Positions 31,294-49,896 of a stretch of DNA of 64,000 bases are shown here, piece after piece. The position numbers and the translations under genes were made by a program. The notes under the pieces are model-generated. The model saw only the letters and a list, made by a program, of their open reading frames with translations, was not told the DNA's origin and searched no databases. Source of the stretch: Peterkaempfera bronchialis (lineage in GTDB: Bacteria; Actinomycetota; Actinomycetes; Streptomycetales; Streptomycetaceae); contig NZ_CP031264.1 in assembly GCF_003258605.2 (NCBI RefSeq), positions 3,038,001 through 3,102,000 of the forward strand, written 5' to 3'. Within the stretch, counting starts at the first letter, position 1. Each line of letters starts with the position of its first letter.

Positions 31294-32349
31294 TCAGCTC
31301 GCCCCGGAGGGGTCGGCCGCGATGCCCGCGCCATTGGCGATGGTGCCGTCGCTGCCGCGTGCGGGGAGGGCCGCTGCGCCGTCGGAGGTGACCCGGGTGG
31401 CGCCGATGTAGTCCGGGGCGTCGATTCTGTCGTAGCGGATCACGGCCCCGGTGTGCGGGGCGTTGATCATATAGCCGCCGCCGACATAGATCCCGACGTG
31501 GTGGATGGTGCGCGGATCGTTGAGGTCGTGGGCGAAGAACACCAGGTCACCGGGGCGCAGCTGGTCACGCGAGGGGTGCTCGCCGGCGTACCACTGGTCG
31601 TTGGCGACCCGGGGCAGCGTGATGCCGACGGTGGCGTACGCGGCCCGGGTGAGCCCGGAGCAGTCGAAGCGGCCGCCCTGCGAGGGCAGTCCCTCGCCGC
31701 CCCAGAAGTAGGGGGTGCCCAGCTTGGTCTGGGCGAAGTAGATGGCGCCGGATGCCTGGGCCGAGTAGGCGACCGGGCTGGTGGCGGCGGTGAAGCTGAT
31801 GGACAGCGAGCGGATCCGCTTCACATAGCCCTGGGTCTCGGCGTACGGCGGCACCCCGCCGTACTGGATGACCCGGTAGGGCCCGGCGTTGTAGGCGGCG
31901 AGCATATTGGCGACCTTGTCGCCGGGGACGTTGCGGGTGTCGCGGGCCAGGGAGCAGTCGTAGGAGGCGGCGGAGGGGATGGCGTCGGCCGGGTCCCAGA
32001 TGTCCTTGCGGCCGTCGCCGTTGCCGTCCACGCCGTGGCTCTCCCAGGTCGGCTGGATGAACTGGGCGATGCCGTAGGCGTGGGCGGGGGAGACCGCAGT
32101 GGGGTTGAAGCCGCTCTCCTGGTAGAGCTGGGCGGCCAGCAGCGGCGGGCTGAGCTCGGGGCAGAGGGTGCCCCACTTCTGGATCAGCCCCTGGTAGGCG
32201 GCGGGCACGGTCCCGGGGGCCAGCGCCGGGACGCCGCCGGCGACCGCAGGCCCGGCTGCGACGTAGGTACCGACCGCGATCAGTCCCAGGAAGGAGAGCC
32301 CGACCGCCCCGGCCGCCCCGGCCACGGCCAAGGACCTGCGGAGTACCAT
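31294..32349 (-). CDS. Bifunctional cell-wall hydrolase: lytic transglycosylase + NlpC/P60
   Basis: A 351-residue exported protein. After a signal or anchor helix (AVAGAAGAVGLSFLGLIAVG, about 8-30) comes a lysozyme-like transglycosylase domain (AQLYQESGFNPTAVSPAHAY, GIAQFIQPTWESHG, AAYNAGPYRV) and then an NlpC/P60 peptidase with Cys in FDCSGLTRAAY, His in IHHVGIYVGG and a polar third residue. Such two-domain hydrolases are the VirB1-like component of Gram-positive conjugation systems (compare Orf14 of Tn916). It is divergent from the type IV-secretion-like operon starting at 32630 and shares its 280-base control region. ATG 32349 has GGGGG 6 bases upstream. Confidence 0.9.
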   Translation of the reverse strand: MVLRRSLAVAGAAGAVGLSFLGLIAVGTYVAAGPAVAGGVPALAPGTVPAAYQGLIQKWGTLCPELSPPLLAAQLYQESGFNPTAVSPAHAYGIAQFIQPTWESHGVDGNGDGRKDIWDPADAIPSAASYDCSLARDTRNVPGDKVANMLAAYNAGPYRVIQYGGVPPYAETQGYVKRIRSLSISFTAATSPVAYSAQASGAIYFAQTKLGTPYFWGGEGLPSQGGRFDCSGLTRAAYATVGITLPRVANDQWYAGEHPSRDQLRPGDLVFFAHDLNDPRTIHHVGIYVGGGYMINAPHTGAVIRYDRIDAPDYIGATRVTSDGAAALPARGSDGTIANGAGIAADPSGAS

Positions 32350-32605
32350 CACATGCCCCCTGCACATGCCGGGCCGACGGACTGACGCCACCACACAGTG
32401 TGGGGCAGGGCGTTGCTCTGAGCAATCGTCAGAGGTACAAGGAGTGAGCGGTATCCTCTGTCAGGGGGGCACTGCCCACCCGGCCCATCCTGGCCGATGT
32501 GGCCCCCACCGCACGACGGATCCTTGAGAAGTAGCCAAGTCGACATCAAATCTGGCCAAGAATAGTCCCCGACCCTTCGCCCGAGCCCGGTGCGGGGCCT
32601 TGAAT

Positions 32606-32617
32606 GCCTGATCAGGC
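32606..32617. promoter_or_regulatory. 12-bp perfect palindrome before the cmd-like operon
   Basis: GCCTGATCAGGC lies 13 bases before the first ATG of the operon, overlapping the place where a transcript leader or ribosome-binding site would be. A second dyad, CAGAGG...CCTCTG, occurs at about 32431-32460 nearer the divergent hydrolase gene. Both could be operators; no binding factor is known. Confidence 0.35.
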
Positions 32618-32629
32618 GGTGAGAAACAC

Positions 32630-32965
32630 ATGACGTCCGACACTCTGAACTACCTGAGCGCGGAGCCCGACAAGGGCAAGAGCATCGACACCATCATCGG
32701 CGGCATCGCGCCCGACTGGGGACCGTTCGCCAGTCTCGGCTCGGAGGCGCGAGTCATGGTCGAGGTGGTGATGGCGGCCTGCCTCCTGGGCTGCCTGGCC
32801 ATCGCGATCTGGGGGGCTGCCAAGCAGCGCATCGGGGCCACGGCCATGCGCGACACCTTCAGCGCCGAACAGGGGAAAGGGCTGATCATCGCCGGGCTCA
32901 CCGGCGTGTTCATCATCGGTTCGCTGGGCACCCTGTTCACCATTGTGTATGGGATGGCCATCTGA
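32630..32965 (+). CDS. Small two-helix membrane protein (VirB2/TrbC-like topology)
   Basis: A 111-residue protein. A polar N-terminus (SAEPDKGKSIDTIIGGIAPD) precedes two hydrophobic helices, about residues 42-64 (MVEVVMAACLLGCLAIAIWG) and 85-110 (GLIIAGLTGVFIIGSLGTLF), joined by a short basic loop. This is the topology of mature VirB2/TrbC pilin-like subunits, although the sequence itself does not prove it. It is the first gene of an operon whose later products resemble type IV secretion parts. From memory it corresponds to one gene of the S. coelicolor cmdABCDEF cluster (SCO4126-4131). Confidence 0.8.
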   Translation: MTSDTLNYLSAEPDKGKSIDTIIGGIAPDWGPFASLGSEARVMVEVVMAACLLGCLAIAIWGAAKQRIGATAMRDTFSAEQGKGLIIAGLTGVFIIGSLGTLFTIVYGMAI

Positions 32966-33179
32966 CGATCCTATTAGTCATCCCGCAGCGGAGTCCCGGT
33001 CACCGGACCCGGGGCAGCGGACGGTCCGCCCTCCCACGGCGCACGCCTTCCGCCCGCTGTGCACCAGCCGCCGGTCTTATGCCCCTTGCAGCAGCCGTCC
33101 CCCGTCCGTCACCGTTGCCACCGTCTCCCCCGGGCCCGCCCGCCGGGGTTGCTCCTTCCTTCGTCCCAGGAGGGCCGCC

Positions 33180-33995
33180 GTGTCGTTGTCCGACGACCAG
33201 CCGCACACCCGTACGCGGCTCCCGGTCGGCGACCTGCCGCCTCCGCAGCCGGGCCGGCAGCCCCGGCCGCTGCGCACCCTGCTGACCGTGATGGGGATCC
33301 TGGTGCTGCTCGTGGTGGCGATCTCCTTCGCCAACCGCGACAAGCCCGACCCCCACCGTGGCAGCGGCACCGCCGCCGCCGACGGCAGCGGCGGCGGCGG
33401 CAAGGCCGCGCCCACCGCCGCCACCGGGCAGCGCCCGGTCGACACCACCAGCAACGGCATCCCCGCCGGCTTCCCGCACACCGACCAGGGCGCCCAGTCC
33501 GCGGCGGCCAACTACGCCGTCGCCCTCGGCTCGGCCGGGATGTTCGACGCCGACACCCGGCACTCGGTGATCGACACCCTCGCCGACCCGGCCGCCGCCG
33601 ACGCCCTGCGCAACCGCCTCGACAGCGCCTTCGCCCAGGGCGCCGCCGCCAAGTACGGCCTCGGGGAGCACGGCACCGCCCCGGCCGGCCTCACCTTCAT
33701 CAGCCGCACCATCCCGGTCGGCACCAAGGTGGAGCAGTACGGCGACGCCGCCGCCCGGGTCGCGGTCTGGAGCAGCGGCCTGATCGGCCTGGCCGGCCAG
33801 GGCTCCACCCAGCCGGTCGCCGAGAACTGGTTCACCCTCACCCTCAGCCTGCGCTGGGTCGGCAACGACTGGAAGGTCGTCGACTTCCACCAGCAGCCCG
33901 GCCCCGCCCCGGTCAACGGCGACCAGCAGGCGGCCAACGCCGACGAGATCAAGTCCGCGGCCGAGCAGTACGGAGGGTTCCGCTATGCCCGCTAG
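33180..33995 (+). CDS. Single-pass membrane protein, TcpC/VirB8-like
   Basis: A 271-residue protein starting at GTG 33180 with AGGAGGG 7 bases upstream. It has a Pro-rich cytoplasmic head, one membrane helix (about 38-56, LLTVMGILVLLVVAISFANR), a Gly/Ala-rich spacer and an extracellular domain of about 180 residues. The domain ends in WFTLTLSLRWVGNDWKVVDF, a pattern seen in NTF2-like VirB8/TcpC domains that assemble the periplasmic or wall-side scaffold of type IV secretion. The last 11 bases overlap the next gene, indicating coupling. The VirB8-like call is structural inference; profile search would decide it. Confidence 0.78.
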   Translation: MSLSDDQPHTRTRLPVGDLPPPQPGRQPRPLRTLLTVMGILVLLVVAISFANRDKPDPHRGSGTAAADGSGGGGKAAPTAATGQRPVDTTSNGIPAGFPHTDQGAQSAAANYAVALGSAGMFDADTRHSVIDTLADPAAADALRNRLDSAFAQGAAAKYGLGEHGTAPAGLTFISRTIPVGTKVEQYGDAAARVAVWSSGLIGLAGQGSTQPVAENWFTLTLSLRWVGNDWKVVDFHQQPGPAPVNGDQQAANADEIKSAAEQYGGFRYAR

Positions 33996-35280
33996 CCCCC
34001 TACTCCGCCGTGCAGGCTCCCTGGGCACCGCACTGGCCGCGATGCAGTTCACCGCGCTGATGGCCGCCCATAGCGTCCTGGCCGCGCCCAGCCCCACACC
34101 GACGCCCACATCGGTGCCCACGCCCGCACCGACCTGCGTGACGCTGCCAGGACCGGGGAGCAGCCACTGCGGCAGCGGCAGCGGGGTGCCCGGCAGCGGC
34201 ACGCTCGACACGGTCACCGACCCCCTCGGCTCCCTCGCCAAGGGCTGCGCCGAAGCCGCCGCCTGGGTGATCCGCCGCCTCTCCACCGCGATCGACAGCA
34301 CCACCGAGGTCGACTTCACCAACGGGGCCTTCCTCCGCCAGTACGCCGTGGTCTTCGCCGCCTCCACCATCCTCACCATGGTCCTGTGGCTGCTGGCCGT
34401 GGCCAAGCGGGCGGTCCGTGGCGCCCCGCTCCAGCAGGCGTTCTCCGAGGCCGTCGGCTACCTCTGGCTGACCGTGCTCGCCTCCGCCTTCACCCCGCTG
34501 ATCCTGTACACCGTGGTCACCGCCACCGACGGCATCACCAAGGCCATCGCCCTGGGCACCAAGTCCGACACCGGCACCTATCTCGGCGGCTTCGCCGACA
34601 CCCTGGAGAAGGGCGACCTCGGCGGCGGCCCGCTGATCCTGATCATCGTCTCGCTGGTCGCGGTCCTGGCCGCCGCCGTCCTCTGGCTGGAGCTGCTGAT
34701 CCGCGCGGCCATGCTCTACGTGGGCGCGCTGCTCGGCACCGCCGTCTACGCGGGCCTGGTGGACAAGCAGCTCTGGAAGCATGTCCGCCGCTGGGCCGGG
34801 CTGATGATCGCCGTCGACCTGGCCAAGCCGGTGATCGTGATCGTCCTGGGCCTGGCCGGGGCCATCGCCTCCGACGCCGGCGCCACCGACTCCTTCGCCA
34901 GGGTCCTCTCCGGCCTGGCCATCCTCTTCCTCTCCATCTTCGCCAGCACCGCCATCTACCGCTTTGTGCCCGGCTTCGGCGACGACATGATCGCCATGCG
35001 CCGCGCCCGCGCCGGAGCGGTCTCGGCCGGCCAGGCCGTGGTCAACGGACCCGCCAACTTCGTCAAGCAGGGCATCTCCACCCACGGTTCGCGCGGCGGC
35101 GGCGACTCCGGCCCGGGCCGGGCCTCCGGCGGCTCCTCGTCCGGGTCCGGCGGCTCGGTCGGTCCCGGCATCGCCGCCCACTCCACCCGCAGCACCGGTT
35201 CCGCCGCCGCACCCCCGGCCCAGTCGGCCTCACCCGCCTCCTCCGCCCACCACAACAGCCCGACTTCGAAGGGGGTGTGA
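33985..35280 (+). CDS. Polytopic membrane protein, VirB6/TrbL-like
   Basis: A 431-residue protein. After an N-terminal hydrophobic segment and a Pro/Thr/Ser-rich external stretch come six membrane helices (for instance YAVVFAASTILTMVLWLLAV, LGGGPLILIIVSLVAVLAAA, PVIVIVLGLAGAIASDAG, ILFLSIFASTAIYRFVPGF), with an amphipathic region LLIRAAMLYVGALLGTAVYA typical of TrbL/VirB6. The tail is a Ser/Gly-rich disordered region. VirB6-like proteins form the inner-membrane channel of type IV secretion. Overlaps the gene before it and is 6 bases from the next, so it is part of a tight operon. Confidence 0.8.
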   Translation: MPASPLLRRAGSLGTALAAMQFTALMAAHSVLAAPSPTPTPTSVPTPAPTCVTLPGPGSSHCGSGSGVPGSGTLDTVTDPLGSLAKGCAEAAAWVIRRLSTAIDSTTEVDFTNGAFLRQYAVVFAASTILTMVLWLLAVAKRAVRGAPLQQAFSEAVGYLWLTVLASAFTPLILYTVVTATDGITKAIALGTKSDTGTYLGGFADTLEKGDLGGGPLILIIVSLVAVLAAAVLWLELLIRAAMLYVGALLGTAVYAGLVDKQLWKHVRRWAGLMIAVDLAKPVIVIVLGLAGAIASDAGATDSFARVLSGLAILFLSIFASTAIYRFVPGFGDDMIAMRRARAGAVSAGQAVVNGPANFVKQGISTHGSRGGGDSGPGRASGGSSSGSGGSVGPGIAAHSTRSTGSAAAPPAQSASPASSAHHNSPTSKGV

Positions 35281-35286
35281 CGGCCG

Positions 35287-36873
35287 GTGACCAGCCAGCC
35301 CGTCGGCCAGTACGGCGGACAGTACGGCGGACAGTACGGCGGAAGCCCCTACACCCACCAGCGCCGGACCTATCTGATCGGCAAGGCCCGGCCCAACGCC
35401 GTCATCGGCCGCAACCGCGAGACCGGCGAGGTGCTGCTGATCATCGCCGGGGCGTTCGTCGGCATGATGGTGGGCCTGCTGGTGCCGCTCCTCCCGCTGC
35501 GCCTGCTCGGTCTGGTCGGCTTCCCCGCCCTCGCCTTCGCCGCCGTCTACGTCCCCTACCGCAAGCGCACCTTCTACAAGTGGGCCGAGATCAACCGCAC
35601 CTACCGGCGCACCGTGCGCTCCGGCAAGGGCAGCTGGCACTCGGGCGTGATGGAGGCCGGCACCCGCCTCGACGGCCGCGAGGTGGAGATCGGCCCGCCG
35701 CCCGGCGTCGGCCGGCTGCGCTGGCTCTCCGCGCCGTTCGGGCCCGACGAGGTCGCCGTACTGCTCCACCTCGACCGGCACACCGTCACCGCCGCCATCG
35801 AGATCGAGGGCCCCGGCGTGGGCCTGCGCGACTCCGAGGACCAGGAGGCCCTGGTCGACCGGTTCGGCACGCTGCTCAAGCATGTCGCCAACGGCGACGG
35901 CTTCGTCACCCGCCTGCAGATGCTGGCCCGTACGCTGCCCGCCGACCCGGACGCCCACGCCAAGGACGTCGAGCGGCGCGGCGACCCCGCCGCACCGCCC
36001 TGGCTCCAGCACTCCTACGACCAGCTGCAGTCGATGGTCTCCACCTCCTCCGAGCAGCACCGCGCCTATCTGGTCGCCTGCATGCACTACACCCGCGAGC
36101 TGGCCGCCGAGGCCAACGCCATGGGCCGCACCGCGCACCGCCGCGCCCGTGGCGACGAGGGCATCGCCGCGGTGATGGCGCGCGAGCTCACCGACATCTG
36201 CGCCCGGCTCGCCGAGGCCGACATCCGGGTCCGCCAGCCGCTCGGCCAGGCGCGGCTCTCCTCGCTGCTGCACTCGATGTACGACCCGGACCACCCCATC
36301 GACCACATCCAGGCCATGTCCCGCCGCAACGCCTGGCCGGCCGAGCTGGACGCCACCCACCCGCAGTACCTGACCGCCAAGACCCGCGAGTCGGCCACCC
36401 GCGAACCCTGGTGCCACGCCACCGCCTGGGTGAAGGAGTGGCCGCTCACCCCCGTCGGCGTCAACTTCCTGGCGCCGCTGCTGGTCCACACCCCGGACGT
36501 GATCCGCACCGTCGCCGTCACCATGGACCTGGAACCCACCGACGTCGCCATCGAGCGGATGCTCACCGAGAAGACCAACGACGACGCCGAGGCCAGCCGC
36601 GCCGCCAAGATGAACCGCACCATCGACCCCCGCGACCTGGCCCACTCCGGCCGCGTCGACCAGCGCGGCGACGATCTGGCGTCCGGCGCCGCCGGCGTCA
36701 ACCTGGTCGGCTACATCACCGTCTCCTCCCGCTCCCCCGAGGCGCTGGCCCGCGACAAGCGCACCATCCGCGCCTCCGCCGGCAAGAGCTATCTCAAGCT
36801 GGAGTGGTGCGACCGCGAGCACCACCGCGCCTTCGTCAACACCCTGCCCTTCGCCACCGGCATCCGCCGATGA
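35287..36873 (+). CDS. SCO6880-family secretion-associated membrane protein
   Basis: A 528-residue protein from GTG 35287. The start carries a GQYGGQYGGQYGG repeat, then a Tyr/Arg segment (HQRRTYLIGKARPNAVIG) and two close membrane helices (about 50-90, VLLIIAGAFVGMMVGLLVPL and LGLVGFPALAFAAVYVPY), followed by a large cytoplasmic domain of about 430 residues. This fits the SCO6880-like family found beside VirB4-like ATPases in actinobacterial conjugation and cmd-type clusters; the short paired helices followed by a soluble part recall a VirB3 or PrgI unit fused to an N-terminal VirB4-like domain. It lies directly upstream of the VirB4-like ATPase gene, which supports a joint complex. Confidence 0.82.
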   Translation: MTSQPVGQYGGQYGGQYGGSPYTHQRRTYLIGKARPNAVIGRNRETGEVLLIIAGAFVGMMVGLLVPLLPLRLLGLVGFPALAFAAVYVPYRKRTFYKWAEINRTYRRTVRSGKGSWHSGVMEAGTRLDGREVEIGPPPGVGRLRWLSAPFGPDEVAVLLHLDRHTVTAAIEIEGPGVGLRDSEDQEALVDRFGTLLKHVANGDGFVTRLQMLARTLPADPDAHAKDVERRGDPAAPPWLQHSYDQLQSMVSTSSEQHRAYLVACMHYTRELAAEANAMGRTAHRRARGDEGIAAVMARELTDICARLAEADIRVRQPLGQARLSSLLHSMYDPDHPIDHIQAMSRRNAWPAELDATHPQYLTAKTRESATREPWCHATAWVKEWPLTPVGVNFLAPLLVHTPDVIRTVAVTMDLEPTDVAIERMLTEKTNDDAEASRAAKMNRTIDPRDLAHSGRVDQRGDDLASGAAGVNLVGYITVSSRSPEALARDKRTIRASAGKSYLKLEWCDREHHRAFVNTLPFATGIRR

Positions 36874-36910
36874 GCACCCCGCCCCCCAGCCGCCGCACCG
36901 AGGAGTCGCC

Positions 36911-38266
36911 ATGCCGTCCCCGCTGAGCGCGCTGACCGAGGCATTCACCAGTTTCGTCTTCGGCAAGGTGGAGACCACCCGGCTGCCGGTACGCACCTCC
37001 ACCGGCCAGGCGCAGGCCGTCTACCTGCCCACCGCCGCCCCCGGCCTGGGCGACTCCGGCGTGATCATCGGCCGCGAGGTCTACAGCGGCAAGGGCTATG
37101 TCTACGACCCGTTCCAGCTGTACGGGCAGCAGCTCCCGGCACCGCACTGGCTGGTCCTTGGCGAGTCCGGCAACGGCAAGTCGTCGCTGGAGAAGACCTA
37201 TGTCCTGCGCCAGCTGCGCTTCCGCGACCGCCAGGTGGTGGTCCTGGACGCGCAGGGCGAGGACGGCGTCGGCGAGTGGAACCTGATCGCGGAGGCGCTG
37301 GGGATAACGCCCATCCGGCTCGACCCGATGGCCGCGCTGGACGGCGGCATCCGACTCAACCCGCTGGACCCGGCGATCACCACCACCGGCCAGCTGGCCC
37401 TGCTGCGCACCATCGTCGAGGTGGCGATGGGCCGTGGCCTTGAGGAGCGGGCCGGGTTCGCCCTCAAGGCCGCCCACGCCCATGTCCACACCGCCATCAC
37501 CGACCGCCAGCCGGTGCTCACCGACATCGTGGACACCCTGCGCAACCCCAACCTGGTGTCGGTGGAGCCGCTCGGGGTGTCGCTGGACGACGTCCGCGCC
37601 TGGGGGCTGGATGTCGCCCTGGTCCTGGACCGCCTGGTCGACGGCGACCTGCGGGGCATGTTCGACGGCCCCACCACGGCCGGCATCGACCTGGATGCGC
37701 CGCTGATCGTCTTCGACCTCTCCCATATCGACCGCAACTCCATCGCCATGCCCATCCTGATGGCCATCGTCGGCGTCTGGCTGGAGCACACCTGGATCAG
37801 GCCGGACCGCCGCAAGCGGATCTTCCTGGTCGAGGAGGCCTGGCACATCATCAGCAGCCCCTTCGTGGCGCAGCTCTTCCAGCGGCTGCTGAAGTTCGGC
37901 CGCCGCCTGGGCCTCTCCTTCGTGGCCGTCGTCCACCACCTCTCCGACGTGGTCGACGGCGCCGCCGCCAAGGAGGCGTCCGCCATCCTCAAGATGGCCT
38001 CCACCCGCACCATCTACATGCAGAAGGCGGAGGAGGCCCGCGCCACCGGCCGGGTCCTCGGGCTCCCCCGCTGGGCCGTGGAGATCATCCCCACCCTGTC
38101 CCCCGGCATCGCGGTCTGGGACGTCAACGGCAACGTCCAGGTCGTCAAGCACATCATCACCGAGACCGAGCGGCCGCTCGTCTACACCGACCGCGCGATG
38201 ACCGAGGACGCGGTCGCCGAGCGGGTACGAGCGGAGCAGCAGCTCGCCGACGACCCCGCCGCCTAG
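36911..38266 (+). CDS. VirB4/TraC-like ATPase
   Basis: A 451-residue soluble P-loop ATPase. Walker A is GESGNGKSSLEKTYVLRQL (about residue 82), Walker B is KRIFLVEEAWHII (about 300) and a following Gln/His-rich helix contains LSFVAVVHHLSDV. The motifs are those of the VirB4/TraG-HerA group that drives substrate or pilin movement. The upstream SCO6880-like protein seems to supply the N-terminal part that canonical VirB4 has. It begins 37 bases after that gene. Matches, from memory, SCO4127 (an ATP/GTP-binding member of the cmd cluster, which influences sporulation and antibiotic production). Confidence 0.88.
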   Translation: MPSPLSALTEAFTSFVFGKVETTRLPVRTSTGQAQAVYLPTAAPGLGDSGVIIGREVYSGKGYVYDPFQLYGQQLPAPHWLVLGESGNGKSSLEKTYVLRQLRFRDRQVVVLDAQGEDGVGEWNLIAEALGITPIRLDPMAALDGGIRLNPLDPAITTTGQLALLRTIVEVAMGRGLEERAGFALKAAHAHVHTAITDRQPVLTDIVDTLRNPNLVSVEPLGVSLDDVRAWGLDVALVLDRLVDGDLRGMFDGPTTAGIDLDAPLIVFDLSHIDRNSIAMPILMAIVGVWLEHTWIRPDRRKRIFLVEEAWHIISSPFVAQLFQRLLKFGRRLGLSFVAVVHHLSDVVDGAAAKEASAILKMASTRTIYMQKAEEARATGRVLGLPRWAVEIIPTLSPGIAVWDVNGNVQVVKHIITETERPLVYTDRAMTEDAVAERVRAEQQLADDPAA

Positions 38267-38282
38267 CACCCCTCGGAACGCC

Positions 38283-40186
38283 ATGACCCGTCCCGTGCGC
38301 CCCTCACCCGCCCCCGCCCCCACCCCCGTGCCCCGCTCCGGGATACCGGACGGGGCGGTGATCGCCCTGCTGGCCGTGCTGCTCGGCTCGGTGGCCCTCA
38401 TGTGGACGGCCACCGGGCTGGCCGCGCTGGTCACCTGCGGGTCCTGGCCCCACGATCTGCCGTTCACCCGGTCCGCGCAGGCGATCCGGCGTCTGGTGAC
38501 CGCACCGCACGACGTGGCCGCCGCCTGGGCGCCGGGCGCGGGTACGGATGCACCGCCGGCGCCGCTGCCCTCCGCGACCGCCTTCTGGTGGACCTTCTTC
38601 CTGCTCCTGGTGGCCCTGACCGCGCTGCTACTGCTGGCGCTCGGCGCCTGGGCACACCTCCGCCGGGCGCCCCACCGGCTCCCGGCGGGTGTGCGGACCA
38701 GCCCCGAGCCCGCTCCGCCGCCCCATCCACAGCCTGTGGACAGAACCTCCGCAGCCACCCCGCCCCACCGACCCCCGTCTCCGCAGACCTCCCCCTCGGA
38801 TGCCTCCCCACGGAGACCTCTCCCCCGAAGACCGCCCCCTCGCTGCCCCCGCCCCCACATCCGCTGTCCTTCGCCGCCCTGCTCCCCCGGGCCGCCGCCA
38901 TCCGCCCGCACCCCGACACCGGCCTCGCCGGGCCCGGCGCCCGCACCGCCCCCGACCCGCTCGCCTACGGTGTCGCCCTGGGCCGCGACACCGCCACCGG
39001 CACCCCCCTCTACGCTCCACTCGACCGCGGCCACTGCGTCTTCGCCCCGCCCTCCGCCACCCGCGCCAAGGGCCCGCTGCTGATCCACCCCGCGATCACC
39101 CACGCCCCCGGACCGGTACTGGCCACCTGCGCCGGCCCCGCCACCTGGGAGGCCACCACCGAACAGCGCGAGAAGACCGGCCCCGTCCGCGTCTTCGACC
39201 CCCTGCGCCTCACCACCGCAGAGGTGCCGCAACGGCTCCGCTGGGCCCCGCACGACGGCTGCCAGGACCCCGCCACGGCCACCGCCCGCGCCGCCGCGCT
39301 GCTGCACCCGGTGATCCCCCCGCACAGCACCGGCCCCGCCGCCGCCGTCCACACCGCAGCCCGCACCCTGCTGCGCTGCTGGCTGCACGCCGCCGCCCTC
39401 GACGACCGGCCGTTCCGCCAGGTGCACCGCTGGTCGGGCAGCCACGGCACCCATGACGCGCTGCGCATCCTGCGCACCCACCGTGGAGCGGCCGAGGGCT
39501 GGAGCGGCGAACTGGAGGCCGCGCTCACCGCCGCCCCGCACGCCACCGGGCGCGAACTGCGGGACGCGGCCCTGGAGTTGCTCACCCGGACCTTCTCCGC
39601 CCTGGAGGAGCTGCATGTGCTGCAAGCCTGCACACCGTCCGCGAGCGACCGGCTGGACGTGGAGTCGCTCCTCTCGGAGCGGGGAACCCTCTATCTGGTG
39701 GCGGAGCCGGTCGAGGCCCCGCACCACCAGCCCGGCGCAATGCCGCTTCTGACCGCACTCGCCCAGGACGTGGTCGAGCGCGGCCGCCGCATGGCCGTAC
39801 GGTCATCCGCCGGCCGGCTCGACCCACCACTGCTCGCCGTCCTGGACGATGTGGCGTCGGTCGCCCCACTGCCCGCCCTGCCCGACCTGATGGTGCGAGG
39901 CGGCGCCCAGGGGGTGCCGACCGTCGCGGTGCTGCGCTCTCCCGAGCAGGCCCGAGCCCGCTGGGACGATCGCTCTGTCCACAGGCTGTGGACAGAGGCC
40001 GCCACCCGCACAGTGCTCGGCCCGTCCGACGCGGCATCGGTACGGGCACTGCTGGCCGCCACGGCAGGCGGCGGCCGGGCGCACCCCGACGGCGGCAGCC
40101 CGGGACCGGCGGCCGACGGCGAGGGCATCGTCCTGCACCCGGCCTCGGGAGCGACGACCACGGTCCGTCTCCCGGGCGCACCATGA
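38283..40186 (+). CDS. Coupling-protein-like (VirD4/TraG-type) membrane protein, split by a frameshift
   Basis: Two frames join to one protein. The N-terminal frame from ATG 38283 has two membrane segments (GAVIALLAVLLGSVALMWTA, TAFWWTFFLLLVALTALLLL). After about residue 140 it decays into Pro/Arg sequence, while a frame one base earlier continues to the stop at 40186 with a coherent domain: LAYGVALGRDTATGTPLYAP, PLLIHPAITHAPGPVLATCA, FRQVHRWSGSHGTHDALRIL, AMPLLTALAQDVVERGRRMA, VLDDVASVAPLPALPDLM. That order matches VirD4/TraG coupling proteins, but the place of the P-loop reads FAPPSATRAKGP, with no GxGKT. Adding one base in the C-rich stretch between about 38680 and 38870 restores a single protein of about 634 residues. 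Sequencing error, real lesion and -1 recoding all remain possible. Confidence 0.65.
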
Positions 40187-40476: not shown

Positions 40477-42219
40477 GTGCCTCAGCTCCACCCGTACGAC
40501 CGGTTCGACCGGCTCCCCTCGACGGAGGCGGCACCACCCGTCGACAGCCCGTGCTCCACCCTGTCCGACCCCGAGCTCACCCGCCTCATCCGCAGCAGCG
40601 AAGCACCCATCGCCCAGGAAGCCGCCGACGAACTGCGCCGCCGTCACCTTCCGCCGGTGCTCGCCTATGCGCGCATCTGCGCCCGGGACTCGCACGCCGC
40701 CGAGCAACTGGCCACCGATGCCTTCAACCGGGCCGCACAGGCCGTCCAGGCCGCCGGAGGGCCCAAGCACGCCTGGCGGCACCAGCTGCTGATGCTCGTG
40801 CAACGCACAGCCGCCGGCTGGGCCACCACCACCCGGCGAGCCCGACTCGCCCCCGACTTCGCCGCCTGGCTCGACAGCACCGCCTCTGACGCCCCCGAGG
40901 CCCGCCCGGACCTGCCCGCGCTCGAACTGCGCTCCCCGATGCTCCGTGGCTTCCGCGCCCTGCCCGAGCGTACCCAGGCGGTCCTCTGGCACTCCGTGGT
41001 CGAGGAGGACGACGACACGGAGACCGGCCGCCTGCTCGGCCTGGAACCGCAGAGCGTCCCCTACCTCCGCGAGAAGGCCCGCGAGGCCTACCGCGACGCC
41101 TACCTCCAGGCCCACGCGGAGTATGGCGCCGCAGAGGAATGCCGGGGGTTCAGCGGGCTGGTGGAGGCCGCCGCCCGGCGCTCCGGCGTGCACCAGAACG
41201 AGGACCTGGACCGCCACCTCGCCGCCTGCCCACGCTGCTCCCGGCTGCTCATCGACCTGGTGGGCATAAGCGAACGCCCCGACGCCGTACTCGCCGAAGG
41301 ACTGCTGATGTGGGGCGGCGCCGCCTATGTCGCAGCCCGCCTCGGCAAGACCGTCACCGGCCGGACCAGCGCCGTCCGCAATCCACGGGCCCTACGCGCC
41401 CGCCGCGTCCCCGCAGCCCCCACCGGGCGCCTGGTCTCCGACCGTTCCGCAGCCCGGCGCCTGGTCCGGCTGCCCCGTCAGTTCCCGGCCCTCAGTGCTG
41501 CGGCGGCCGTCGTCGTCATCGCAGCCACGGCCGCCACCACCATCGTCACCCTGGTCCCCTCCAACAGCAGCAGTACGGCCGTCGGCGGCGGCGATCCGCT
41601 CGGCATCCCGCCGCTGGTCGTCTCCCGTACCACCGCCTTCGCCACGGTCACGGTCGCGGCGCCCACCTCAGCCGCTCCACCATCCGCATCCGCATCGGCC
41701 TCGCCGTCACCCAGCACCTCCCTGTCCAGCCGCCCGGCCTCCCCACCCCGCACCTCCGCCGGCACCGCAGCCGCCCTACCGCCCCCGCCGACCCTCGGCA
41801 TCACCTACAGCGAGCTGGTCGACGGACGATCCGGGCTCTGCCTGGACGTCCAGGACCAGTTCCTCGAACAGGGCGCCGATGTGATCGTCCACACCTGCAC
41901 AGGGGCAACCTCGCAGAAGTGGTACCTGGACGCGGGCCATCTCCTCCGCAATTACGCCAACCCGGATTTCTGCCTCGACTCCCGGGGTGGCACCCGACGC
42001 GGCGTCGGCGTCTGGACCTGCGCATCCGCCGCCGGCCGCAACGGCGACAACCTCCGCTTCGAGATCACCGCCGACGGCGCCATCCGACCCTCCATCGACG
42101 GCCGCCACGAACTCACCCCCACCGGAGACGACTCCGGCAGCAGGGTCGCCCTCGCATGGGCCCAGGACCGCACCGACCAGCAGTGGCGCAAGGGCGCCAC
42201 GGCCGTACTCCAGGAGTGA
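40477..42219 (+). CDS. Membrane-anchored sigma-like protein with zinc finger and ricin-type lectin domain
   Basis: A 580-residue fusion. Residues about 30-215 look like an ECF sigma factor: a region-2-like helix set (AADELRRRHLPPVLAYARIC, HAAEQLATDAFNRAAQAVQ) and a region-4-like part (FRALPERTQAVLWHSVVEED, LLGLEPQSVPYLREKAREAY). A zinc-finger anti-sigma motif follows, HLAACPRCSR (HxxxCxxC, about 245). Then a membrane helix (about 333-357, ALSAAAAVVVIAATAATTIV), a Pro/Ser linker and a C-terminal ricin-type beta-trefoil with repeated QxW elements (GATSQKWYLD, DRTDQQWRKG) and paired Cys. The plan suggests a sugar-sensing membrane protein whose inner end is a sigma factor. A second protein of the same plan is encoded at 53221. 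GTG 40477 has GAGGAG upstream. Confidence 0.82.
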   Translation: MPQLHPYDRFDRLPSTEAAPPVDSPCSTLSDPELTRLIRSSEAPIAQEAADELRRRHLPPVLAYARICARDSHAAEQLATDAFNRAAQAVQAAGGPKHAWRHQLLMLVQRTAAGWATTTRRARLAPDFAAWLDSTASDAPEARPDLPALELRSPMLRGFRALPERTQAVLWHSVVEEDDDTETGRLLGLEPQSVPYLREKAREAYRDAYLQAHAEYGAAEECRGFSGLVEAAARRSGVHQNEDLDRHLAACPRCSRLLIDLVGISERPDAVLAEGLLMWGGAAYVAARLGKTVTGRTSAVRNPRALRARRVPAAPTGRLVSDRSAARRLVRLPRQFPALSAAAAVVVIAATAATTIVTLVPSNSSSTAVGGGDPLGIPPLVVSRTTAFATVTVAAPTSAAPPSASASASPSPSTSLSSRPASPPRTSAGTAAALPPPPTLGITYSELVDGRSGLCLDVQDQFLEQGADVIVHTCTGATSQKWYLDAGHLLRNYANPDFCLDSRGGTRRGVGVWTCASAAGRNGDNLRFEITADGAIRPSIDGRHELTPTGDDSGSRVALAWAQDRTDQQWRKGATAVLQE

Positions 42220-48019: not shown

Positions 48020-49896
48020 TCAGTGTGCACGCCGGACCGGCAGCAGGAACTCGCACCACACCGCCTTTCCCCCGTCCGGCGTACGGCGTGTTCCCCAGCC
48101 GGAGGCGATGGTGGCGACGATGGCGATGCCACGGCCGGACTCGTCGACTACGGCGGCTCGCCGGCGGCGGGGGAGGTGGTCGTCGGCGTCCGTGACCTCG
48201 ATGATCAGGCGGCGGTCGGTGCGGCGGATGCGCAGGCGCATGGGCGGGATGCCATGGGTGAGGGAGTTGGAGACCAGTTCGCTGACGGCGAGGACGCCGA
48301 GGTCGCGCAGTTCGTCGCTGAGCCGCCAGCTGGAGAGCACGCCGGAGGTGAAGGCGCGGGCGCGGGCCGCTGTCTGGGGGGTGCCGAGCAGGTCCAGGGA
48401 GGCGACGCGGAAGAGGTCGGCGGTGTGCTCGTCCCGTTGGGGGAGCTGGAAGGCGAGGACCGCGACATCGTCGTCGTGTTCGGGGGTGACGCCCATGGCG
48501 CGGAGCAGCCGGGCGCAGAGGACTTCGGGGGACCGGCGGGGCCGCCGAGGGTGCGGTCGAGCGTGTCGAGGCCGACGTCGATGTCCTCGCCCCGGCGTTC
48601 GACCAGGCCGTCGGTGTAGAGCACGCCGGTGGCGCCGGGGTTCAGCGGGACGGAGCCGGAGGTGTGCAGCCAGCCGCCGGTGCCCAGGGGTGGGCCGCAC
48701 TGGGCGTCGGCGCGGGTGACGGTGCCGTGGGGCTCGCGGATCATCAGCGGGAGGTGGCCCGCCGAGGAGTAGGTGATGCAGTTGTCATTGGGGTCGAATA
48801 CGGCGTACACGCAGGTGGCGATCTGGGTGGCGTCGATCTCCATGGCGAGGCCGTCGAGGAGTTGCAGCACCTCGTGGGGCGGCAGGTCCAGGCGGGCGTA
48901 GGCGCGGACGGCGGTGCGGAGTTGGCCCATCACGGCGGCGGCGCGCATGCCACGGCCCATGACGTCGCCGATGACCAGGGCGGTGCGGCCGCCGCCGAGG
49001 GTGATGACGTCGTACCAGTCGCCGCCCACGGCGGCGTCGGCTCCGCCGGGCTGGTAGGTGGCGGCGACGCGCAGGTCGTCGGGCTGCTCCAGTTTCTGCG
49101 GGAGCAGGCTGCGTTGGAGGGTGACGGCGGCTTCGCGGTGGCGGCGTTCGCTCTCGCGGAGGCGTTCGGCGACCTGCATCTGGTCGGTGACCTCGGCGGC
49201 GAAGACCAGCACTCCGGTGACCTCGGTGGTGTCCGGTGTCCCTGCGGCGGCGGCGCGGCGGAGGGTGGCGAGCATGCCCAGCCCGCCGGCCGGCGTGGGC
49301 GGGGTGTCGGAGGTGGCGGGGTGCTCCGGGCCGTCGGTGGCGAGGGCGGAGAGCTGGGCGCCGAGCGGTTCGCCGGCTCGGATGGGTGCGCAGACGAAGC
49401 TGTAGTAGCGGTGCCGTTCGGGGGCGGTGGAGAGGACCACGCGGCGGGCCTTGACGGTGCGCGGGCGGCCGCTGCGCAGGACCTGGTCCATCAGGGGCAG
49501 CAGGCCGAGTTCGGCGAGTTCGGGCATGGTGTCGCGGGCGGGGGTGCCGGCGGTGCGGTGGCCGAAGACCTCGACATAGGCGTGGTTGACATAGCCGACG
49601 TGGTGGTTGGGCCCGTAGGTGACGGCGACCAGGGCCGGGACATGGGCCAGCACATCGTGCACGGAGAGCTCATGTCTGCCGGGCGGTTCGCCGGGCTCTC
49701 CGGGGGGAGGCCCGTCGGCGGGTGGTCCGGGGCGGGCTTGGGGGACCGCTGCCGCGCCGGAAGCGTCGGCTGGGCCGGGCGACCGCTCGCCCGTCTGCTG
49801 CGGGGCGGTACGCCGCTGTGCTCCGGGGAGCCGGGCGCTCCAGCGCGTGAGATTCAAAACGACCGCTGCTTCCTCGCGTTTCTCGTGCTTCGTCAC
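48020..49896 (-). CDS. PAS-SpoIIE phosphatase with anti-sigma kinase-like ATPase domain, frameshifted
   Basis: One protein in two frames. The N-terminal frame carries a PAS domain (LVAVTYGPNHHVGYVNHAYV) and a PP2C/SpoIIE phosphatase (LQRSLLPQKL, AAVGGDWYDVI, VIGDVMGRGMRAAAVMGQL, VLYTDGLVERR). It loses sense after DRTLGGPAGPP, and the other frame takes over at PEVLCARLLRAMGVTPEHDD and ends in a HATPase-type domain (AVSELVSNSLTHG, DESGRGIAIVATIASGWG). Adding one G in the run GGGGG at 48527-48531 (one C on the coding strand) fuses them in frame. Such proteins act on anti-anti-sigma factors and combine phosphatase and kinase-like modules. Start is uncertain: GTG 49896 or GTG 49917. The gene is upstream of the rRNA promoters and reads towards them. 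Confidence 0.8.

What the first reader, a model, noticed from the sequence alone, without database searches (positions are those of the whole stretch)
31294..40186. Chromosomal type IV-secretion-like apparatus without a relaxase
A VirB1-like two-domain wall hydrolase is divergent from a tight run encoding a two-helix pilin-like protein, a TcpC/VirB8-like protein, a polytopic VirB6/TrbL-like protein, an SCO6880-type protein, a VirB4-like ATPase and a coupling-protein-like component. No relaxase, integrase or origin of transfer is present, and the operon sits in core chromosome. From memory it equals the S. coelicolor cmdABCDEF cluster, whose loss alters sporulation and antibiotic output. If it is a secretion machine, its cargo and role in development are undescribed.
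Basis: partly seen in the sequence, partly recalled or inferred. Interest (0 to 1): 0.82.

Follow-up and report, generated by a model that had tools for sequence, protein, structure and literature searches.

The report
Domesticated type IV secretion machine in Streptomyces
Antibiotic-producing soil bacteria related to Streptomyces have turned a plasmid DNA-transfer machine into a fixed chromosomal apparatus needed for normal sporulation; its built-in loading motor is decaying, and a structurally matching motor encoded elsewhere, whose mutants behave the same way, may have taken over.

Summary
Window 31294-40186 holds a divergent VirB1-like SLT+NlpC/P60 hydrolase and a tight run of pilin-like, VirB8-position, TrbL/VirB6-like, SCO6880-family, VirB4-like and TraG-like genes in core chromosome, with no relaxase nearby. 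It is the ortholog of S. coelicolor tgdA-cmdFEDCBA. A type IV-like channel was already proposed for it in 2009 (PMC2782261), so the core idea is not new.

New here:
(1) The machine descends vertically through essentially all Streptomycetales sampled, with the same gene order as plasmid T4SSs.
(2) The operon's coupling protein CmdA is degenerating: P-loop intact in 1 of 18 full-length copies, stub or nothing in 18 of 36 loci, frame-split in this genome. CmdB is under strong purifying selection.
(3) An unlinked gene beside gabT, the SCO5677 ortholog, folds like VirD4-type coupling ATPases (top Foldseek hits TrwB, Cagβ) and keeps its P-loop in 33 of 38 plus 70 of 70 copies. Published transposon data give SCO5677, tgdA and cmdBCDEF mutants the same phenotype; cmdA is not listed.
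(4) Frankia-like genomes carry a separate, independently fixed version.

Cargo is unknown and secretion undemonstrated. Verdict: new variant of a known kind.

The parts
31294..32394 (-). VirB1-like wall hydrolase (lytic transglycosylase SLT + NlpC/P60), ortholog of SCO4132 tgdA
   Evidence: Pfam SLT 5.2e-17 and NLPC_P60 4.6e-24; divergent neighbour found in 29 of the 36 relative loci, most of the rest being short contigs; tgdA mutants phenocopy cmd mutants (PMC6585502)
32395..32629 (.). Divergent intergenic region; palindrome TTGCTCTGAGCAA near 32410-32425, pattern found in 12 of 29 relatives
   Evidence: alignment and pattern count of intergenic regions; function not tested
32630..32965 (+). 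CmdF: 111-aa two-helix pilin-like (VirB2-like?) protein
   Evidence: 76% mean column identity across the order; no family match; slot occupied on a conjugative plasmid by a weak T4SS_pilin match, 0.0019
33180..33995 (+). CmdE: single-TM protein in the VirB8/TcpC position
   Evidence: hhalign 98.8% and 94.9% to the plasmid proteins in the same slot; no Pfam or PDB profile match
33985..35280 (+). CmdD: polytopic TrbL/VirB6-like protein
   Evidence: TrbL_4 in 6 of 20 orthologs; hhalign to a PF04610 TrbL/VirB6 ICE protein E 1.9e-11
35287..36873 (+). CmdC: SCO6880-family protein; mobile members of the family show weak PrgI (VirB3-like) plus EccE-like domains
   Evidence: NF042935 5.4e-57; hhalign to a plasmid 'PrgI family' protein E 3.2e-13; PrgI/EccE matches in plasmid, ICE and Frankia-type members
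36911..38266 (+). CmdB: VirB4 C-terminal-type motor ATPase with intact Walker A GESGNGKS and Walker B LVEEAWH
   Evidence: AAA_10 1.5e-11, TraC 2.6e-11; both motifs conserved in the 13 aligned orthologs; dN/dS 0.046-0.136
38283..40186 (+). CmdA: degenerate TraG/VirD4-like coupling protein, frame-split in this genome (break between about 38600 and 38759)
   Evidence: TraG-D_C 2e-7; hhalign 6.9e-69 between its orthologs and mobile-element coupling proteins; P-loop lost in 17 of 18 full-length orthologs; frame break against two congeners

Best explanation
This is a domesticated, vertically inherited type IV secretion apparatus that no longer conjugates DNA and works as an envelope-spanning export machine during hyphal development. 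CmdB (VirB4-type motor), CmdC and CmdD form the inner-membrane translocon, CmdE the VirB8-type scaffold, CmdF a short pilin or channel subunit, and TgdA opens the peptidoglycan. The ancestral coupling protein CmdA has been decaying, and the unlinked VirD4-fold ATPase SCO5677 (beside gabT) is the most likely substrate receptor in most of the lineage. The likely cargo is protein or peptide acting in envelope or aerial-hypha development. Shown here: gene content, homology, vertical descent, CmdA decay, the coupling-protein fold of SCO5677. Published: developmental phenotypes, CmdB at the membrane, conserved-lysine mutants of CmdB failing to complement. Inferred: secretion, cargo, and the physical SCO5677-Cmd partnership.
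For: T4SS parts by profile. Same gene order on Streptomyces plasmids, two of them typed MOBF. cmdB orthologs in 40 of 41 genomes searched and in every Streptomyces-type genome listed, with a sharp drop to 50% identity or less elsewhere; one cmd clade following genus and family groupings. CmdA P-loop intact in 1/18, with stub in 4/36 and none detectable in 14/36 loci; cmdA deletion is wild-type in S. coelicolor (PMC2782261). SCO5677 ortholog by gabT synteny, VirD4 motifs in Pfam for divergent members, AlphaFold2 pLDDT 84.5 and Foldseek top 38 hits all TrwB or Cag-beta coupling ATPases, best E 6.6e-12. SCO5677, tgdA and cmdBCDEF transposon mutants share antibiotic overproduction and aerial-hypha involvement (PMC6585502).
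Against: No secreted substrate, complex or SCO5677-Cmd interaction is known. SCO5677 loses its P-loop in genomes G003, G006, G019, G021 and G012, and is absent from G025 and G046 although their cmdB is intact. SCO5677-like proteins occur in f21 genomes, six of which have no SCO6880-family member at all. Co-occurrence within Streptomycetales is confounded by common descent. Actinorhodin overproduction is a common pleiotropic phenotype. VirB8 and pilin assignments are not structurally proven.
Confidence: 0.55

Rival explanations
1. It is a DNA pump for chromosome partition or intramycelial DNA movement in sporulating hyphae, as the 2009 authors suggested, with CmdB acting like FtsK.
For: Null mutants give 6-8% anucleate spores and uneven nucleoids (PMC2782261); CmdB belongs to a DNA and peptide translocating ATPase superfamily.
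Against: CmdB matches VirB4-type, not FtsK-type, families; a separate FtsK with gamma domain is present (L136:3238-5946). The operon carries a wall hydrolase and pilin-like gene, which partition does not need. The DNA-type coupling protein is the part that decayed, and deletion did not affect plasmid transfer. Segregation defects are common secondary effects of aberrant septation.
Confidence: 0.15
2. A membrane complex without secretion: the T4SS scaffold was reused as a structural or signalling device for tip growth or wall remodelling, with TgdA as the effective output.
For: Loss of coupling-protein ATPase motifs in part of the lineage; aberrant branching and collapsed hyphae in mutants; tgdA shares the phenotype.
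Against: Motor motifs of CmdB are conserved in aligned orthologs and conserved-lysine substitutions abolish complementation; pilin-like CmdF and TrbL-like CmdD are kept; SCO5677 keeps an intact P-loop in most species.
Confidence: 0.2
3. Remnant of a mobile element in passage (ICE or plasmid), not a host function.
For: Close gene-order relatives on Streptomyces plasmids.
Against: Present in nearly every member of the order with tree order matching taxonomy; low dN/dS; no relaxase or integrase recognised in the run; developmental phenotype in three species.
Confidence: 0.03
4. SCO5677 is unrelated to Cmd: a coupling-type ATPase working with something else, the shared phenotype being pleiotropic. 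(This rival concerns only the trans-receptor part of the best explanation, so its probability is not exclusive of it.)
For: Unlinked; present without any T4SS in some f21 genomes; absent from G025 and G046, which have cmd.
Against: VirD4-type coupling proteins have, to my knowledge, no known role without a T4SS-like partner; the window genome has only one VirB4-like ATPase above cut-off; shared transposon phenotype.
Confidence: 0.35

Closest known systems
Streptomyces coelicolor cmdABCDEF (SCO4126-4131) with tgdA (SCO4132)
   Same: Orthologous operon in the same order, near the pst locus; CmdB VirB4-like; published sporulation and antibiotic phenotypes (PMC2782261, PMC6585502).
   Different: The window genome's cmdA is frame-split; the decay of CmdA and the VirD4 nature of SCO5677 were found in none of the papers located.
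Streptomyces plasmid T4SSs (pMDJK44.2, MOBF; S. sp. NBC_00334 plasmid, conjugative MOBF; SLP2.21-23)
   Same: Hydrolase, pilin-like, VirB8-slot, VirB6-slot, SCO6880/PrgI, VirB4-type ATPase and coupling-type protein in the same order.
   Different: The three plasmid coupling proteins read here keep GK[ST]; two of the plasmids are typed MOBF; about 49% identity or less to Cmd proteins.
VirD4-family coupling ATPases (TrwB of R388; Cag-beta)
   Same: SCO5677 model matches over 438-514 alignment columns, TM-score 0.5-0.69 on the target; N-terminal TM helices, P-loop, Asp-rich Walker B.
   Different: Encoded far from its presumed translocon, in a metabolic neighbourhood; sequence too diverged for Pfam in the Streptomycetaceae member.
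Non-conjugative Gram-positive T4SSs (S. suis 89K; Saccharibacteria)
   Same: Minimal monoderm VirB1/3/4/6/8/D4 set with a non-conjugative role (review PMC12857230).
   Different: Those are a pathogenicity island and an epibiont system; this one is an order-wide core locus of free-living filamentous bacteria with a developmental role, and the passages searched in that review do not mention it.

Membership tests
Type IV secretion system (monoderm, minimal) | VirB4-type motor ATPase | tested here: met
   CmdB: AAA_10 1.5e-11, TraC/VirB4 models, intact Walker A and B
Type IV secretion system (monoderm, minimal) | VirB6/TrbL polytopic protein | tested here: met
   CmdD: TrbL_4 9e-5, hhalign 1.9e-11 to a PF04610 protein
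Type IV secretion system (monoderm, minimal) | VirB8/TcpC-like protein (NTF2-like fold) | tested here: inconclusive
   Homologous to VirB8-slot plasmid proteins; no family or PDB profile match; single-sequence fold unusable, pLDDT 45
Type IV secretion system (monoderm, minimal) | VirB1-type peptidoglycan hydrolase | tested here: met
   SLT plus NlpC/P60, divergent and conserved
Type IV secretion system (monoderm, minimal) | VirB3-like small protein or domain beside VirB4 | tested here: inconclusive
   CmdC family members show PrgI at 0.0025-0.044
Type IV secretion system (monoderm, minimal) | VirB2-type pilin | tested here: inconclusive
   CmdF is a two-helix protein in the right position; no profile match
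Type IV secretion system (monoderm, minimal) | VirD4 coupling ATPase in the operon | tested here: not met
   CmdA is homologous but its P-loop is lost in 17/18 full-length copies, it is a stub or undetected in 18/36 loci, and frame-split here
Type IV secretion system (monoderm, minimal) | Demonstrated substrate translocation | not testable with these tools
   needs secretome or transfer assay
Conjugative element (ICE or plasmid) | Relaxase near the T4SS | tested here: not met
   No TrwC-type match in the genome; single PF03432 match about 277 kb away
Conjugative element (ICE or plasmid) | Origin of transfer | not tested
   no oriT search was run
VirD4/TrwB coupling ATPase (for SCO5677 ortholog) | N-terminal TM helices plus RecA-like motor of the TrwB fold with P-loop | tested here: met
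   AlphaFold2 pLDDT 84.5; Foldseek TrwB E 6.6e-12; P-loop in 33/38 and 70/70
VirD4/TrwB coupling ATPase (for SCO5677 ortholog) | Works with a T4SS translocon | not testable with these tools
   only indirect: shared transposon phenotype

The most novel reading that the evidence does not exclude
Filamentous actinomycetes have at least twice (Streptomycetales and Frankia-like genomes) fixed a conjugative T4SS into the core chromosome. In Streptomycetales it became a developmental protein-export machine whose original coupling protein was replaced by an unlinked VirD4-type ATPase, SCO5677: an order-wide, non-conjugative, non-pathogenic T4SS of monoderm bacteria.
Probability: 0.4. Interest if true: 0.88.

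Novelty: new variant of a known kind. Interest (0 to 1): 0.72.

Why it matters
A December 2025 T4SS review (PMC12857230) states that nearly all known Gram-positive T4SS functions are DNA transfer and calls non-conjugative roles an open question. This locus is a core-genome candidate in genetically tractable organisms, with published sporulation and antibiotic phenotypes. The SCO5677 link turns an unexplained membrane cluster into a testable machine with a named motor, channel and receptor. It would tie antibiotic control and sporulation to a secretion device.

Tried and rejected
Chromosomal second coupling ATPase via TraG-D_C: the other weak hit (G000:C1:1.84 Mb) is an EssC/EccC-type FtsK ATPase of type VII secretion by reading, so rejected. 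AAA_10 second hit at 4.99 Mb is FtsK. CmdC as the N-terminal lobe of a split VirB4: only 5 of 20 orthologs touch a VirB4 model, best E 0.12, so not claimed. CmdE structure: single-sequence AlphaFold2 failed. Profile searches of the PDB with CmdE, CmdD, CmdC, CmdF and SCO5677 gave nothing useful; for SCO5677 only the fold search worked. Sequence-profile comparison of SCO5677 with mobile coupling proteins was only suggestive (81.9%). Viral-contig scans for CmdC and CmdE relatives: none. Frankia VirB8 assignment by comparison with CmdE: the protein tried did not match. Rfam near the operon: only rRNA. Frameshift as general assembly noise: of the window genes with congener matches only cmdA is split across frames, but a single sequencing error cannot be excluded.
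Full report
CHECKING THE OBSERVATION. The divergent gene 31294-32394(-) has SLT and NlpC/P60 domains; the run 32630-40186(+) holds an SCO6880-family protein (NF042935, 5.4e-57), a VirB4-type ATPase (AAA_10 1.5e-11; TraC 2.6e-11) and a TraG-like protein (TraG-D_C 2e-7). The window is G000:C1:3038001-3102000 of a single-contig 7.09 Mb genome. The nearest named organism, by the SCO5677 protein, is Streptacidiphilus sp. ASG 303, so the host is a Streptomycetaceae member. The neighbourhood is core: a pst cluster (by reading the gene calls) lies upstream and an rRNA operon downstream. In S. coelicolor pstS is SCO4142 and tgdA SCO4132 (PMC6585502), which fits.

IDENTITY WITH cmd. The gene order matches S. 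coelicolor tgdA-cmdFEDCBA. The 2009 paper (PMC2782261) reports co-transcription, developmental induction, CmdB at the membrane, failure of conserved-lysine mutants of CmdB to complement, delayed and aberrant sporulation with 6-8% anucleate spores, no effect on transfer of an SLP2-derived plasmid, and no sporulation phenotype for the cmdA deletion. It already names VirB4 similarity and a possible type IV-like channel. A genome-wide transposon screen (PMC6585502) finds that tgdA, cmdBCDEF and SCO5677 mutants all overproduce actinorhodin (and, by its citation, prodiginine) and says all three take part in aerial hypha formation; cmdA is not listed.

ARE THE PARTS TYPE IV PARTS? CmdD: TrbL_4 in 6 of 20 orthologs (best 9e-5) and hhalign E 1.9e-11 to an ICE protein that itself hits TrbL/VirB6 at 9.2e-10. 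CmdC: hhalign E 3.2e-13 to a plasmid 'PrgI family' protein; mobile and Frankia-type family members show weak PrgI (VirB3-like) and EccE-like domains, the latter above cut-off in one ICE copy (1.5e-7). CmdE: no family match, but hhalign 98.8% and 94.9% to proteins in the same slot of two plasmids typed MOBF; its fold is unproven. CmdF: very conserved two-helix protein (76% mean identity), pilin-like by position only.

VERTICAL, NOT MOBILE. cmdB orthologs occur in 40 of 41 genomes searched, the window's own included. In a class-wide sample of 247 genomes the orthologs (78% or more) fall in the window's family plus one genome of another family, and everything else is at 50% or less. A 67-row maximum-likelihood tree gives one cmd clade (38 rows) in which members group by genus and family; the nearest outside rows are Streptomyces plasmid copies, with long branches. 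Plasmids carry the same order with a coupling protein that keeps GK[ST], and two of them are typed MOBF. No TrwC-type relaxase is in the genome and the only MobA-type match is about 277 kb away. dN/dS is 0.046-0.136 for cmdB, 0.066-0.213 for cmdC, 0-0.127 for cmdF, 0.10-0.40 for cmdD, 0.28-0.60 for cmdE and 0.33-0.43 for cmdA.

THE OPERON'S COUPLING PROTEIN IS DECAYING. CmdA is a true relative of mobile-element coupling proteins (hhalign 6.9e-69). Of 36 relative loci, 18 have a full-length CmdA, 4 only a 141-158 aa stub and 14 nothing detectable, including all 12 of family f3. Among the 18, only one keeps a GxxxxGK[STG] P-loop, while the ICE and plasmid copies keep the GK[STG] step. In the window genome cmdA is split between two frames, with the break between about 38600 and 38759; two congeners have it in one frame, and no other window gene compared with congeners is split.

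A COUPLING ATPASE IN TRANS. The SCO5677 ortholog was located by gabT: SCO5676 is GabT and SCO5679 GabD (PMC5403932), and the window genome has gabT, this gene, pucR and a dehydrogenase in that order (gabT within reach in 71 of 80 named loci). Pfam sees no coupling-protein family in the Streptomycetaceae protein, but among 17 aligned orthologs several match TraG-D_C (1.5e-5), TrwB (8.7e-6), HerA (4.2e-8) and T4SS-DNA_transf (0.004). AlphaFold2 with 46 orthologs gives pLDDT 84.5 and pTM 0.80. Foldseek against the PDB returns TrwB and Cag-beta coupling ATPases as its top 38 hits (best E 6.6e-12, target TM 0.69), with HerA helicases next. The P-loop is intact in 33 of 38 plus 70 of 70 copies. The gene is found in 38 of 41 genomes. 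I infer that SCO5677 is the receptor of the Cmd machine; this joins a fold result to a published shared phenotype and is not a demonstration.

WHAT SPEAKS AGAINST IT. SCO5677 is missing from G025 and G046, which have cmdB, and has lost its P-loop in G003, G006, G019, G021 and G012; the first four are exactly the genomes with a CmdA stub. A 38-40% relative occurs in 14 f21 genomes, six of which have no SCO6880-family protein. So the coupling step may be dispensable in some lineages, or SCO5677 may have another partner.

A SECOND DOMESTICATION. Family f20 carries a conserved chromosomal operon (VirB1-like, lipoprotein-like, pilin-like, VirB6-position, SCO6880, VirB4-type) without a recognisable coupling protein in the fetched stretches. 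SCO6880 is present in 32 of 35 of its genomes. In the VirB4 tree it branches apart from cmd.

MECHANISM AND VERDICT. Most likely a domesticated export machine: motor CmdB, translocon CmdC/CmdD, scaffold CmdE, short pilin CmdF, wall opener TgdA and receptor SCO5677. The cargo is unknown, more likely protein than DNA, because the DNA-type coupling protein is the part that was lost and plasmid transfer is unaffected. The channel idea was published in 2009. The decay of CmdA, the identity of SCO5677 as a VirD4-fold ATPase, the order-wide conservation and the Frankia-type parallel were not found in the literature searched.

Noticed in passing
L095-L100 (genomes G126, G170, G272, G149, G138, G076; family f20, probably Frankiaceae): A separate chromosomal T4SS-like operon, its SCO6880 gene found in 32 of 35 genomes, with two different conserved flanks (an egt-like cluster in genus g84), no coupling protein seen nearby, and a weakly BcsQ-like protein (0.029) beside the pilin-like gene.
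   Followed up: partly
L101:10891-12312 (-) and SCO6880-family proteins generally: SCO6880-family proteins match EccE of type VII secretion (PF11203, 1.5e-7, above cut-off) as well as PrgI weakly, hinting at a T4SS-T7SS link.
   Followed up: no
window 32400-32460 and relatives: Palindrome TTGCTCNGNGCAA followed in many Streptomycetaceae by GTGATACACACAGTAAG between tgdA and cmdF, pattern found in 12 of 29 loci; a candidate operator for the divergent promoters.
   Followed up: partly
L049, L050, L056-L064, L066 (family f3): CmdB orthologs carry a variable C-terminal extension of about 70-140 residues, and no CmdA is detectable.
   Followed up: no
L138:7265-7999 (G000:C1 about 3.35 Mb): MobA-type relaxase domain with a DUF2637 gene nearby: probable remnant or integrated mobile element in the window genome, 277 kb from cmd.
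   Followed up: partly
window 40477-42219: Gene downstream of cmdA with a weak sigma-70 region 2 and zinc-finger signal and a C-terminal ricin-B lectin domain (1.5e-14).
   Followed up: no
L179-L184 (f21 genomes): SCO5677-like ATPase of 519 aa with canonical VirD4 motifs, preceded by a separate 364-366 aa protein, in a neighbourhood without a T4SS.
   Followed up: partly
window 48205-49653 (-): SpoIIE-type phosphatase (5.7e-42) near the rRNA operon.
   Followed up: no
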